Assembly (NCBI RefSeq): GCF_000016605.1
Contig: NC_009440.1
Location: forward strand, 1,772,001 to 1,836,000
From: Metallosphaera sedula DSM 5348
GTDB lineage: Archaea; Thermoproteota; Thermoprotei_A; Sulfolobales; Sulfolobaceae
Direction: 5' to 3'
Length of the DNA stretch: 64,000 bases
The translations under genes and the position numbers were made by a program. The notes under the pieces are model-generated. The model was not told the origin of the DNA, searched no databases, and saw nothing but the letters and a program-made list of their open reading frames with translations. Below, piece by piece: positions 23,441 through 34,889 of the stretch; the first letter of the stretch is position 1, and every line of letters begins with the position of its first letter.

Positions 23441-23490
23441 ACAACTAGGTCCAAACAAAATATTTATTATAGCTACATGTGTCTAACTCT

Positions 23491-24504
23491 ATGCCAGTAG
23501 CTCTGATTACCGGTGTAACTGGTCAGGATGGGGCTTTGCTATCCAAGTTTTTGATAGACAAAGGCTACGAGGTACACGGTATTATTAGACGTACAAGTAC
23601 CATGAACATATGGAGACTTGTATCGTTAGACATTGTAGACAAAGTGAAGTTACACACCTGCGATATTACTGATTCGACATGTATGTCAAATATAATTAAG
23701 GAGCTTAAACCTGACGAGTTATATCATCTTGCGGCGCAGAGTCATGTTGGAGCCAGTTTTGAGAACCCCACTAGTACTCTGAGTGCGAACACCATGTCTA
23801 CCGCTATTATGCTCGAATCAATACGTAAGCATTCTCCAGGAACTAAGTTCTATTTTGCTGGTACCAGCGAAATGTTTGGTAGTCTATCTGGCAAAGCAAA
23901 CGAGTCTACACCATTTCGTCCAGAGTCACCATATGCTGTGTCCAAGGTTTGATCTTATTATTTGACGAAAGTGTATAGGGAAGCTTACAGGATCTTTGCT
24001 CTTTCTGGCATATTATTTAATCACGAATCCGAGTATCGTGGTTTAGATTTCGTCACAAGAAAGATATCAAACGCTGTAGCAAGGATAAAACTAGGATTAC
24101 AGGACCAGTTACGCTTAGGTAACTTGTCGTCTAGGAGAGATTGGGGTTACGCTCCTGAATACGTAGAGGCCATGTGGTTAATGCTACAGAAGGATAAACC
24201 AGACGACTACGTAATAGCTACGGGGGTAAGTTACTCAGTGCAAGATTTCGTTACAGAGGCGTTTAACGTGGTAAACTTGGATTACCGGGAGCATGTTGTC
24301 ATAGACAAATCATTATATCGCCCACTTGATCCATCTAATCTCGTGGGGGACTACACAAAAGCTAAGAGAGTGTTAGGTTGGGAACCTAGAACAGACTTTA
24401 GGAAGCTTGTTAAAATAATGGTTAATGCAGATTTAGAAAGATGGAAAAAATTCATGGATGGGGAAAATGTTGTATTTGACGCTCCTTATTCAGCAGAGAG
24501 CTGA
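23491..24504 (+). pseudogene. gmd: GDP-mannose 4,6-dehydratase interrupted by one TGA
   Basis: One frame of 338 codons contains a single TGA at 23950-23952 (codon 154). The protein has the Rossmann motif GVTGQDG, RRTSTMN, LAAQSHVGASF, GTSEMFG and catalytic YAVSK. The stop comes two codons after the catalytic lysine. The rest is well conserved ([47 protein letters not shown]). Start: ATG 23491, with TATA-like ATATTTATTATA about 30 bases upstream; GTG 23479 is possible. Intact enzyme converts GDP-mannose to GDP-4-keto-6-deoxymannose. It lies just beyond the IS1-like copy. The enzyme should be absent unless the stop is read through or is an error. Confidence 0.85.
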
Positions 24505-26920: not shown

Positions 26921-28063
26921 ATGGACTTGAAGGAGGAGATACTTAGACTGCTTAGGGAGGACCCAGAGTTTAGGAGGGAGGTCATGGAGCTATTAGGCCT
27001 AGCCCCAAATGAGATGAGGGAACTCAAGGAGCTGGTGAGGCAATTGACTGAGGTCGTGAACAAGCTAGTGGAGGGGCAGGCCAAGATCGAGACGAGGTCA
27101 AGTGAGGCACAGAAGAGAAGCGAGGAGAGACTAACTAGACTCGAGTCCGCGGTTGAGAAACTAGCCGAGGCACAGAAGAGAAGCGAGGAGAGACTAACTA
27201 GACTCGAGTCCGCGGTTGAGAAACTAGCCGAGGCACAGAAGAGAAGCGAGGAGAGACTAACTAGACTCGAGTCCGCGGTTGAGAAACTAGCCGAGGCACA
27301 GAAGAGAAGCGAGGAGAGACTAACTAGACTCGAGTCCGCGGTTGAGAAACTAGCCGAGGCACAGAAGAGAAGCGAGGAGAGACTAACTAGACTCGAGTCC
27401 GCGGTTGAGAAACTAGCCGAGGCACAGAAGAGAAGCGAGGAGAGACTAACTAGACTCGAGTCCGCGGTTGAGAAACTAGCCGAGGCACAGAAGAGAAGCG
27501 AGGAGAGACTAACTAGACTCGAGTCCGCGGTTGAGAAACTAGCCGAGGCACAGAAGAGAAGCGAGGAGAGACTAACTAGACTCGAGTCCGCGGTTGAGAA
27601 ACTAGCCGAGGCACAGAAGAGAAGCGAGGAGAGACTTACCAGAGTTGAGGAGAACCTAGTCCGCCTTGAGAGAAAGGTGGGAAACATAGGCGCCCGTTGG
27701 GGGATAGATCAGGAAGAGGTGGTTAGGGAATTCATGGCCGAGGTCTTCAAACAGGAGGGGTTTGACGTATCACTGTTGAGCAGTTATACCTACGTTGATG
27801 AGCAGGGCGTGTTTGGGGAAAAGGGAGACGTATACGAGGTAGACATCCTAAAGAGGAATGGTACCACCTACCTCATCGAGGTCAAGGCCTATGCCCAGCC
27901 GAAGGACGTTTCGAGGTTTAACCACACGTGTTACGTGGTGTCCAAGGTCCTAAAACTTGAGAACCCCGTGAAGATGATGCTGGCTAACGTCGTGACTCAG
28001 AAGGCAGTGGAGAGGGCCAAGAACCTAGGAATCAGGTTGATTTATGGAGAGGTTGAGCAATAA
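26921..28063 (+). CDS. Coiled-coil protein with C-terminal PD-(D/E)XK nuclease-like domain
   Basis: 380 residues. Residues 1-61 form a charged helix. Residues 62-229 are eight perfect 21-residue repeats (three heptads each, starting [20 protein letters not shown]), and 230-241 a ninth partial copy, together a long predicted coiled coil. The C-terminal 125 residues carry DVYEVDIL (Asp308) and LIEVKAY (Glu320, Lys322), the D-x(n)-E-x-K core of PD-(D/E)XK nucleases. This layout is known for DUF3782-type proteins of Sulfolobales, whose role is not established. TATA-like GCTTATTATTT lies about 26 bases upstream of ATG 26921. The repeats should make length unstable between strains. Confidence 0.8.
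27104..27643 (+). repeat. Tandem array of eight identical 63-bp units plus a partial unit
   Basis: The unit starts GAGGCACAGAAGAGAAGCGA and is repeated exactly eight times (27104-27607). The ninth copy diverges after about 36 bp. 63 bp is 21 codons, so gain or loss keeps the frame. It lies within the coiled-coil nuclease-like gene. Because copies are identical to the base, they must be recently amplified or homogenised. Confidence 0.95.
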
Positions 28064-32530: not shown

Positions 32531-32689
32531 GTTTGGGAATAATTTAACATGAATAAAAACTTAATTGAACAGATAGCACACACCTTAAAATGACTCCCTT
32601 TAATCTCCTTTATCGTGTAGCGTGGGATTTAGTGATCCTTTTATGTTCGTTAACAAGATGTACTCAAAAGGTTTTGTCATGTGATATGG

Positions 32690-33022
32690 CGGAGAAGTAA
32701 CTCTCACGCAGTTATACCTCTAAGAAGTCTAGGAAGTGCTCTAGGCTCTATCACGTTACTACCTTCTCAATGATGTTTCACATTCTCTCCTTAGAGGTTC
32801 TCCCATCTAAACCTAGGGCCTTGTCTCTTAGGGCCCTTCTGACGGAACCGGGAGCATAAGCAGTCTAAGTTTAAGATCTAGTGTCATAAAGTTCCTTGGT
32901 CGTCTTCACTATCTCATGCGGGCCCTTGGACACGTAAGAGTTTAGGTGCTACACTGGACTTCGAATCCTGGAGACAGTTCAGGCCATTCGCAGGTTCTCC
33001 AGGCTTTCAATATCTTCCAAGA
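32690..33022 (-). pseudogene. Strongly decayed coding sequence, perhaps a transposase
   Basis: A single minus-strand frame keeps protein-like composition across about 110 codons despite eight stops: FLEDIESLENLRMA, LNSYVSKGPHEIVKTTKELY, APGSVRRALRDKALGLDGRT, SKERM, NIIEKVV, LEHFLDFLEV. Conservation of one frame with point stops suggests a dead gene rather than noise. The RRALRDKALGLDGRTSKE part recalls Sulfolobales transposases, but I cannot name a family. The 500-bp gap 32531-33032 holds nothing else. Confidence 0.35.
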
Positions 33023-33032
33023 ATTCGCGAGA

Positions 33033-33899
33033 CTAGATGCCGGATCCAAAGATGACTTCTCCCTCGGAAAGATTTACGATTCTCAAATTACCTAGTTTGT
33101 CTAAAACCCTTTCAGCCACTTGCCTCCATTTGTCGGAACCGCCTTGTGTATCTTGTTTATTACGTGAATTTTCTAGTGAATTTTTAAGGTCGTTATATAT
33201 TATAAATGGATCATAATCGTTAGTAACAAAGAAAATTTTATCATAAACTCCACCACTTAACGCTAGGTATATTTCGGTTAAAATAACCCTATCCATCCTG
33301 TTGGCACTTGCACCTTCTTTTTTCTTTAGATTTTCACTTACTATTTTTTCATCTATAAGAGTAAGTTCCATCATTAAATTATCTTTCAAGCTGACTGTTG
33401 AAGGTAAAGGTTCAAAATTCTCGTCTAGTCTTTTATTCATCGAAGCTATCACTGGTTCCCAATTTTTACCTCCTAACACATCATTTATTATTTCTTCCCT
33501 AGTTCTGGTATGGAACCTGTTTTCAAGCTTCCTGAAAAGCCTTAGCCCAATCTTCGCCTTTTCACCGTTATTTTTAGCTTTATACTTAGTTTTATATAGT
33601 TCCTGGAACTTTTCAGTAAAATTCTTGTCTAGATTCTCAAGTAGATTAATCCTATCTTCAAGAGACAATTGGTCCCAGTTATCAGGCAAATTAGTTTCAA
33701 CTATCGTTTTAGTTATGTCTAAAATACTAATAGTTACGCTGTTAAGCTCAGTCCTCACAGTATTGAGGAGAAATATTTCGAATTGTTCATTGCTTTTAGC
33801 ACGTCGAACGATCTCCTGTACTTGCCTTGTCTTTGCCTGGTCTAAATAATCAAAAATATAATAAAACAAAAGATTTGTATCAAAAGTAATACCTATCAC
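33033..33899 (-). CDS. PIN-domain protein with a large helical insertion
   Basis: 288 residues starting with GTG in TAGTG, which overlaps the stop of the upstream gene by one base. The PIN acidic residues are visible: Asp7 in ITFDTNLLF, Glu51 in VRTELNS, Asp203 in NRMDRVILTEI, and Asp228 in FFVTNDYDPF. Between residues 60 and 195 lies a long, charged helical insertion not found in small VapC toxins. PIN enzymes cut single-stranded RNA with Mg/Mn. The coupling to the upstream protein suggests a complex or toxin-antidote pair, but the partner does not look like a VapB. AT-richer than neighbours. Confidence 0.65.
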   Translation of the reverse strand: MIGITFDTNLLFYYIFDYLDQAKTRQVQEIVRRAKSNEQFEIFLLNTVRTELNSVTISILDITKTIVETNLPDNWDQLSLEDRINLLENLDKNFTEKFQELYKTKYKAKNNGEKAKIGLRLFRKLENRFHTRTREEIINDVLGGKNWEPVIASMNKRLDENFEPLPSTVSLKDNLMMELTLIDEKIVSENLKKKEGASANRMDRVILTEIYLALSGGVYDKIFFVTNDYDPFIIYNDLKNSLENSRNKQDTQGGSDKWRQVAERVLDKLGNLRIVNLSEGEVIFGSGI

Positions 33900-34585
33900 T
33901 ACTTAACCCCAAAGAGTGCGCTTAAGTAATCGTTAGTATACTCATTGAATAGGGGAGGGCTTACTCTTGAGTTAAATTCTATCAATATTGCAACAAAATC
34001 TGCCAAGGTTTTATAGTTCATTGGTTTATCGTTTATGTATAGCATTAGGGGGGCTAGAAACTCCATCAAAAAGTATATTATCGAATTCACTTCCCTTGTT
34101 AACCCAGGATTATCCTTAGCCTTAGCGTGGCTTAGTGTGACTGATCTCAAATTTGCGTACTTGAAGGATAAAACGTCCAGGAATTCCTGATAGTAAAGTT
34201 CCATGATCGGATTTGATTTATCTTTTCTTTTGATGAGTTCAACAAATTCTTTTTTCCCTTTAGTTAAATTATCCAAGACACGACTGATTCTCCTTAGCCA
34301 AAAGTCCTTGTAGTCCTCGTCGTTCAAGTTTTCAAGTAGTTTATAGACTTTCGAGTACTTCTCCTGAATCTCACGTAACTCTCCAGGTTCGATCTCCAGG
34401 TTACTTGACAGGTTACTTGACAGGATTATATGTTCAGAAAATTTTTCATAAAATCTTGATAAAGCGTCTGAATATTCTCTGTCTAGTTCCCCCAATAACC
34501 TTTCCAATGTCTCTACCGAGATGCCTGCCTTTCTCAGTTTGTTCTCGTCCTCCTTATCTATGCCATGCAATAGTGCTAGTTTCAT
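33899..34585 (-). CDS. Helical protein of unknown function, partner of the PIN protein
   Basis: 228 residues, mostly predicted helix, highly charged in the first 130, with a hydrophobic patch near 165-185 (SIIYFLMEFLAPLMLYI). No known motif found. Start: ATG 34585, but GTTTATATAAA on the minus strand lies only about 10 bases before it; TTG 34570 would suit a leaderless transcript better. Translation is coupled to the PIN gene through TAGTG. It may bind RNA or control the PIN protein; that is inference from gene order alone. Confidence 0.55.
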   Translation of the reverse strand: MKLALLHGIDKEDENKLRKAGISVETLERLLGELDREYSDALSRFYEKFSEHIILSSNLSSNLEIEPGELREIQEKYSKVYKLLENLNDEDYKDFWLRRISRVLDNLTKGKKEFVELIKRKDKSNPIMELYYQEFLDVLSFKYANLRSVTLSHAKAKDNPGLTREVNSIIYFLMEFLAPLMLYINDKPMNYKTLADFVAILIEFNSRVSPPLFNEYTNDYLSALFGVK

Positions 34586-34801
34586 GTTTTTATATAAACG
34601 TTTACGAACTTATAGATTTTAATGAATCGCCACACGCCGGCGATGGATTAAGTGACTTCGCCTTATATCGAGATTCTCTCTCCTAGTCGATCAAATAACC
34701 TTAGCTATAGCTCTAACCACGGTTTCGTTATGCATAAGAAGGATTCAAGTAGGAGCTAAGCGGTTCTAGTACTAAGATTACCGCTTGATAAAATTTGAAT
34801 G

Positions 34802-34889
<88 letters not shown>

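What the first reader, a model, noticed from the sequence alone, without database searches (positions are those of the whole stretch)
33033..34585. Translationally coupled PIN-domain protein and unknown helical partner
The PIN residues Asp7, Glu51, Asp203 and Asp228 are present, but a 130-residue helical insertion makes the protein twice the size of VapC toxins. Its GTG start overlaps the stop of a 228-residue unknown protein as TAGTG. The partner has no VapB-like DNA-binding motif. The pair sits at the edge of an IS-rich island and is AT-richer than what follows. It could be an undescribed two-gene ribonuclease system.
Basis: partly seen in the sequence, partly recalled or inferred. Interest (0 to 1): 0.6.

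Follow-up and report, generated by a model that had tools for sequence, protein, structure and literature searches.

The report
Archaeal two-gene PIN nuclease module
In heat-loving acid-living archaea, an oversized RNA-cutting-type protein travels with the same unknown helical partner, as a mobile gene pair that looks like a toxin and its guard and fits no family in the libraries we searched.

Summary
Two minus-strand genes overlap by one base (TAGTG): a 228-aa all-helical protein, then a 288-aa PIN-fold protein. Both belong to one conserved, mobile two-gene module. In the window's class, 12 of 229 genomes carry it, and all 12 have both genes side by side. D7, E51, D203 and D228 are invariant in 9 of 9 intact PIN proteins. 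AlphaFold2 gives a confident split PIN fold, closest to VapC toxins, with an inserted helical block of about 100 residues. No Pfam, NCBIfam, PADLOC or PHROGs family fits either protein convincingly. The pair fills a variable site beside a tRNA that is empty in a sister species. It has been reshuffled by recombination between genera. In 7 of 16 copies the PIN gene is broken or gone, most often with the partner intact; the reverse was never seen. Best reading: a toxin-antitoxin-like or abortive-infection module of PIN ribonuclease plus helical inhibitor, working like VapBC but outside VapBC by partner type and size. RNase activity, toxicity and complex formation are inferred, not shown.

The parts
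33899..34585 (-). Upstream partner: 228-aa all-helical acidic protein (pI 5.6), member of an unnamed family; putative inhibitor/antitoxin
   Evidence: ORF; alignments A2/A3 with 11/14 members; model pLDDT 77, pTM 0.73; no library family
33033..33899 (-). 288-aa PIN-fold protein with D7, E51, D203, D228 and a helical insertion of about 100 residues; putative ribonuclease toxin
   Evidence: ORF; A1; model pLDDT 86.4, pTM 0.83; VapC matches Z up to 9.6
33897..33901 (-). TAGTG stop/start overlap (1 nt) joining the two genes
   Evidence: in the 9 intact pairs the first start codon of the PIN frame lies from 23 nt inside the partner gene to 6 nt after it
34593..34598 (-). TTTATA promoter-like box 8-13 nt before the partner's ATG
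   Evidence: sequence only; not conserved in position among relatives
34801..34889 (-). tRNA gene; the pair is the first gene after its 3' end
   Evidence: also found beside the empty site of G182 and the different insert of G184

Best explanation
A mobile two-gene toxin-antitoxin-like (possibly abortive-infection) module. The second gene makes a metal-dependent PIN endoribonuclease whose active site is D7/E51/D203/D228 and whose inserted helical block helps to hold the RNA substrate or the partner. The first gene, translated just before it by overlapping genes, makes a helical protein that binds the nuclease and keeps it silent. Loss of the partner, or a trigger such as a virus, would free the nuclease to cut RNA and stop growth. 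Shown here: conserved pairing, invariant catalytic residues, PIN fold by prediction, mobility, purifying selection, more frequent loss of the nuclease gene. Inferred: RNase activity, inhibition by the partner, trigger and target.
For: Adjacent pair in all 12 family-bearing genomes of 229. Invariant acidic residues. Predicted fold matches VapC toxins at Z 8-9.6 over 127-140 residues spanning nearly the whole chain. 7 of 9 members match Pfam PIN at E<=1, best 3.3e-4. Patchy distribution: 11 of the 31 genomes of its family listed, 3 of 6 in its genus. Different insertion sites; empty site in G182 and other cargo in G184. 3 of 14 copies are the first gene after a tRNA 3' end on the same strand. 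Recombination mosaic L033/L035. PIN broken or absent in 7 of 16 copies, with the partner intact in 4 and short of its last residues in 1; intact PIN with broken partner 0 of 16. PIN and partner divergence correlate (Mantel r 0.94, 1 of 20,000 permutations, n=9).
Against: No toxicity, RNase or binding data. The partner lacks any detected DNA-binding motif and is 2-3 times larger than usual VapB-type antitoxins (usual size recalled). The excess of broken PIN genes is modest (chance about 0.05 for 5 of 5 when target size is allowed for), and frameshifts in draft genome G181 could be errors. No copy was found on a named plasmid or virus (two phage rows had E 0.6-0.8 only), so the mobile carrier is unknown. 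L033/L035 show partner and PIN can be reshuffled, against strict one-to-one pairing.
Confidence: 0.6

Rival explanations
1. A two-subunit ribonuclease: the partner is an activating or sensing subunit rather than an inhibitor, and the complex acts on a specific RNA, for instance viral RNA, as a defence nuclease.
For: The partner is large, conserved (F114, Y131, Y132, P179 invariant) and not a typical antitoxin; purifying selection on both genes; overlapping genes suggest coupled expression.
Against: Partner copies persist where PIN is broken (L031, L036, L037, L038), which is odd for a mere activator; no PADLOC defence family fits.
Confidence: 0.25
2. A house-keeping RNA-processing enzyme similar to HARP, the minimal protein-only RNase P, which is also a PIN domain split by an inserted helical block.
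For: HARP chains match at Z 5.4-6.7; a review describes HARP as a split PIN domain with an inserted helical domain and says its function in archaea is unclear (PMC10941002, passages).
Against: Patchy presence, 12 of 229 genomes; frequent pseudogenes; no PIN_5 match among 9 members; constant partner gene; larger (HARP about 23 kDa).
Confidence: 0.06
3. A catalytically dead or purely regulatory remnant: the PIN protein binds RNA without cutting it and the pair is selfish cargo without toxin function.
For: Many decayed copies; no activity data.
Against: Catalytic residues invariant in 9 of 9 across proteins as low as 19% identical; dN/dS 0.14-0.25 in PIN.
Confidence: 0.09

Closest known systems
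VapBC type II toxin-antitoxin systems (PF01850 PIN toxins)
   Same: PIN fold with D-E-D-D acidic residues; two overlapping genes with the putative inhibitor first; patchy and mobile; best structural matches are VapC chains
   Different: 288 aa against 119-145 aa for the 12 PF01850 proteins read from this genome; PIN split by about 100 extra residues; partner is a 220-251 aa helical protein without detected RHH, AbrB, PHD or HTH domain
HARP, minimal protein-only RNase P (PIN_5)
   Same: Split PIN domain with an inserted helical block; Z up to 6.7
   Different: No PIN_5 profile match; larger; has a constant partner gene; patchy and decaying
PIN_12 (PF16289) and PIN_8 (PF18476)
   Same: Weak matches in 2 of 9 and 1 of 9 members; a 252-aa PIN_12-like protein of G234 aligns to the family profile over the DTN...E part
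   Different: No member was shown to pass the curated cut-off; the window protein matches neither
New PIN-associated antitoxins listed by Makarova et al. 2009 (PMC2701414, section 9 read)
   Same: Unrelated small proteins paired with PIN toxins in archaea and bacteria
   Different: Those listed there are described as DNA-binding (HTH, AbrB, RHH, MerR types); none is described as a large helical protein

Membership tests
VapBC (type II TA) | PIN fold with conserved D/E/D/D | tested here: met
   9 of 9 invariant; model and VapC matches; hhalign to 11 own-genome VapC aligns DTN..E only, prob 50, E 1.6e-4
VapBC (type II TA) | toxin of roughly 120-150 aa | tested here: not met
   286-294 aa in 9 intact copies against 119-145 aa in own-genome VapCs
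VapBC (type II TA) | small DNA-binding antitoxin (RHH, AbrB, PHD, HTH) | tested here: not met
   Partners 220-251 aa; no such Pfam family above its cut-off in the 11 scanned. A hidden DNA-binding fold is not excluded.
VapBC (type II TA) | bicistronic, overlapping or adjacent genes, antitoxin first | tested here: met
   9 of 9 intact pairs, first PIN start codon from 23 nt inside the partner gene to 6 nt after it
VapBC (type II TA) | toxin RNase activity neutralised by partner | not testable with these tools
   needs expression and RNase assays
HARP | PIN_5 profile (PF08745 as recalled) | tested here: not met
   not among the families matched by 9 members at E<=1 (25 of 26 families shown)
HARP | split PIN with inserted helical domain | tested here: met
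   definition
HARP | RNase P activity, homo-oligomer | not testable with these tools
   needs purified protein and pre-tRNA assays
PIN_12 / PIN_8 | profile match over cut-off | tested here: inconclusive
   best E 8.5e-4 (2 of 9) and 5e-4 (1 of 9); the window protein matches neither
Known anti-phage defence systems (PADLOC 2.0.0) | profile match of either gene | tested here: inconclusive
   only single-member weak matches, best 1.4e-4 to RT-associated SLATT in 1 of 14 partners; the window's partner matched that model at 0.13 over residues 42-118

The most novel reading that the evidence does not exclude
An undescribed class of archaeal conflict module: a PIN ribonuclease with a built-in helical RNA or partner clamp, guarded by a large non-DNA-binding helical protein, inserted beside tRNA genes, with the guard kept as an immunity protein after the nuclease has died, and possibly mimicked by viruses: two unnamed viral protein models match the guard's predicted fold with Foldseek probability 1.00.
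Probability: 0.3. Interest if true: 0.75.

Novelty: new variant of a known kind. Interest (0 to 1): 0.52.

Why it matters
Toxin-antitoxin and defence systems of archaea are mostly recognised by similarity to bacterial ones. This pair escaped every library used here yet is a coherent, mobile, selected module in Sulfolobales, where genetics and viruses are available. If right, it adds a new antitoxin family and a PIN nuclease with an inserted domain whose purpose can be tested directly. The kept-partner, lost-nuclease pattern offers a simple prediction about immunity.

Tried and rejected
Named family for either protein: Pfam, NCBIfam, PADLOC, PHROGs and PDB by sequence gave nothing convincing. 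The Pfam UFL1, SLATT_5 and similar matches are weak helical matches in one or two members.

Partner as a membrane protein: one helix near residue 166 has Kyte-Doolittle maxima of 1.4-2.2, borderline. The model places it among other helices, so this is left open.

Partner as a duplicate of the PIN insertion: hhalign probability 4%, rejected.

Partner fold in PDB: best Z 7.1, helical bundles only. A missing match does not show a new fold.

PIN by Foldseek alone: no match at E<=0.001, best E 0.92. The VapC matches come only from the VIA-align second look.

Viral or plasmid carrier: no match in phage, plasmid or IMG/VR scans, except rows at E 0.6-0.8, dropped. To find the source of the two BFVD models I guessed accession numbers near an Acidianus bottle-shaped virus 2 entry and scanned ABV2, ABV3 and the first 20 kb of ARV2 with the partner profile: nothing convincing. 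Hydrogenobaculum phage HP1 and the rest of ARV2 were fetched but not scanned. The source stays unknown.

SSV1 a291 toxin (PMC13431529, outline and passages): described there as a secreted hydrolase-like fold, unrelated.

Matches dropped from the genome counts: short N-terminal PIN matches in G015, G026, G033, G120 and G234, G262, G268, G347, G522, E 9.5e-4 to 7.5e-7; G425 for the partner, E 4.1e-4.

Programmed frameshift in the broken PIN genes: the breaks lie at different places (profile positions about 157, 200, 135 and 222), so decay is likelier.

Full report
What is there. On the minus strand, a 228-aa ORF (33899-34585) is followed by a 288-aa ORF (33033-33899) whose GTG start shares its G with the TAG stop, TAGTG. 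The window lies in a single-contig 2,191,517-bp genome; from recall that is the size of Metallosphaera sedula DSM 5348, not checked by a tool. A tRNA gene lies at 34801-34889(-), with its 3' end towards the pair.

It is a real family. With profile models of each protein, 12 of 229 genomes of the window's class carry full matches, and the same 12 carry both genes next to each other (positions). Four more genomes had only short N-terminal PIN matches and were dropped. Eleven of the 12 belong to the window's own family, of which 31 genomes are listed; the twelfth, G021, is in another family of the order. In the genus it is 3 of 6. A phylum-wide sample of 398 genomes added only short or weak matches. 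Two scans of 84,980-species genome contigs with single proteins gave nothing, but those find close relatives only. Genomes outside the phylum were not searched with profiles.

The nuclease. Nine intact PIN copies (the other eight 19-47% identical to the window's) keep D7, T8, N9, E51, D203, D228 and D230 without exception. 7 of 9 match Pfam PIN at E<=1, best 3.3e-4, although the window protein itself does not. AlphaFold2 gives pLDDT 86.4 and pTM 0.83. A second-look structural alignment puts VapC toxins and close kin at Z 7.6-9.6 over 127-140 residues, spanning residues 1-288 or nearly so; Foldseek itself gave no significant match. Other PIN proteins follow at lower Z: SMG6, HARP, Utp24. The insertion sits between the helix with E51 and the helix with D203: the E-D spacing is 152 residues against 51 in the first of the own-genome VapCs of alignment A4. 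I could not read atomic distances from the model, so the geometry of the acidic site is inferred from the fold match.

The partner. Fourteen copies, 220-251 aa, mostly acidic (pI 4.9-5.8, one 8.3), with F114, Y131, Y132 and P179 invariant. The model is all-helical with moderate confidence (pLDDT 77, pTM 0.73). No DNA-binding family was matched above its cut-off, and no PDB fold stood out. Against predicted viral proteins two entries stood out, A0A0N9NIM4 (161 aa, E 1.4e-3, probability 1.00, 20% identity) and A0A0N9NWX9 (176 aa, E 0.015, probability 1.00). Their organisms were not given and I could not find them. This is a lead only.

Mobility. In relative G182 the flanking genes and the tRNA are syntenic, but between the tRNA (ending at 4183 in L115) and the next gene (4258) there is no pair. 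In G184 the same gap holds other cargo, with transposase- and ATPase-like ORFs judged by eye. G183 and G185 are rearranged there and not informative. Pair copies of other genomes lie in unrelated surroundings. Three of 14 copies (window, L029, L031) are the first gene after a tRNA 3' end on the same strand, at 216, 604 and 469 bp; with the tRNA density of these loci about 0.1 would be expected (P about 1e-4; the 700-bp limit was chosen after seeing the data, and the two PIN-less relics L083 and L084 were not scanned for tRNAs). L033 and L035, from different genera, share a block of 82-97% DNA identity over the partner, a little upstream DNA and about the first 25 PIN codons. The rest of the PIN gene falls to 52-82% and the flanks to chance level. 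So the module recombines, and partner and nuclease can be re-paired within a subtype. Across subtypes they diverge together (Mantel r 0.94, n=9).

Decay. Sixteen copies were found in the 12 genomes. Nine have both genes intact. In seven the PIN is broken or absent: L031, L036 and L037 by stops or frameshifts, L038 truncated, L039 (the second copy of this very genome) split by an internal inversion, L083 and L084 without PIN. The partner is intact in L031, L036, L037 and L038, lacks its last residues in L039, is open with an internal N-terminal deletion in L083, and is broken in L084. No copy has an intact PIN with a broken partner. The bias is suggestive, not strong (0.054 for 5 of 5), and it is what a toxic nuclease with a protective partner would leave behind. 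Partner pairs where both copies lack a working PIN still show low dN/dS (L036-L083 0.21 at dS 0.75; L036-L038 0.08 near saturation), though selection may predate the loss.

How it most likely works. By analogy with VapBC, the partner is made first and binds the nuclease; free nuclease cuts RNA with metal ions held by the four acidic residues. The inserted helices resemble in kind the spike-helix block that splits the PIN domain of HARP (PMC10941002, passages), so RNA or partner binding is their likeliest use; that step is inference. Sulfolobales use VapBC in heat stress, biofilm dispersal and uranium dormancy, and keep some VapB genes without their toxin (PMC10127717, abstract and passages; the heat-stress study PMC11633383 seen only in the listing), which makes a kept guard gene plausible here.

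Known or new. The pair works like a toxin-antitoxin system but is not filed as VapBC: toxin size and partner type fail. Makarova et al. 2009 list PIN-associated antitoxins (section 9 read); none described there is a large helical protein. Searches of the held papers found no description of this pair (the PIN classification of Matelska et al. 2017, recalled, was not held). I rate it a new variant of a known kind.

Noticed in passing
L039:9314-10868 (G000:C1:764346-765864): Second copy of the module in the same genome, with a segment of about 350 bp inverted inside the PIN gene: the N-terminal half lies on the plus strand, the C-terminal half and the partner on the minus strand. No strong inverted repeat at the breakpoints (best 72% over 25 nt). 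Relic, or invertible switch, not decided.
   Followed up: partly
model of the window partner (33899-34585): Two unnamed viral proteins, A0A0N9NIM4 (161 aa) and A0A0N9NWX9 (176 aa), match the partner's predicted fold with Foldseek probability 1.00; source virus not identified.
   Followed up: partly
L033:8720-10304 and L035:8569-10189: Sharp mosaic: partner plus the PIN 5' end nearly identical between genera, the rest of PIN diverged.
   Followed up: yes
L086:1272-2919 (G234) and L085:3849-5148 (G522): Other 236-252 aa PIN proteins (L086 PIN_12-like) whose frames overlap an upstream ORF of unknown family; perhaps further two-gene PIN modules.
   Followed up: partly
L083:9453-10088 and L084:9239-9936 (G203): Two partner relics without any PIN in one genome, beside a third copy with a broken PIN (L036).
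   Followed up: partly
window 26921-28063 (+): DUF3782-type protein with many near-identical tandem repeats of about 21 aa before a PD-(D/E)XK-like C-terminus (weak match).
   Followed up: no
window 23479-24504 (+): Sugar-nucleotide dehydratase-like gene apparently split over two frames (by eye).
   Followed up: no
window 34801-34889 (-): ARAGORN reports the tRNA with a four-base anticodon and no identity, also in relatives G182, G183 and G184; perhaps an intron.
   Followed up: no
window 32540-33030: Non-coding spacer left of the pair; 91 bp of it recur at 78% identity at G000:C1:1758777.
   Followed up: no
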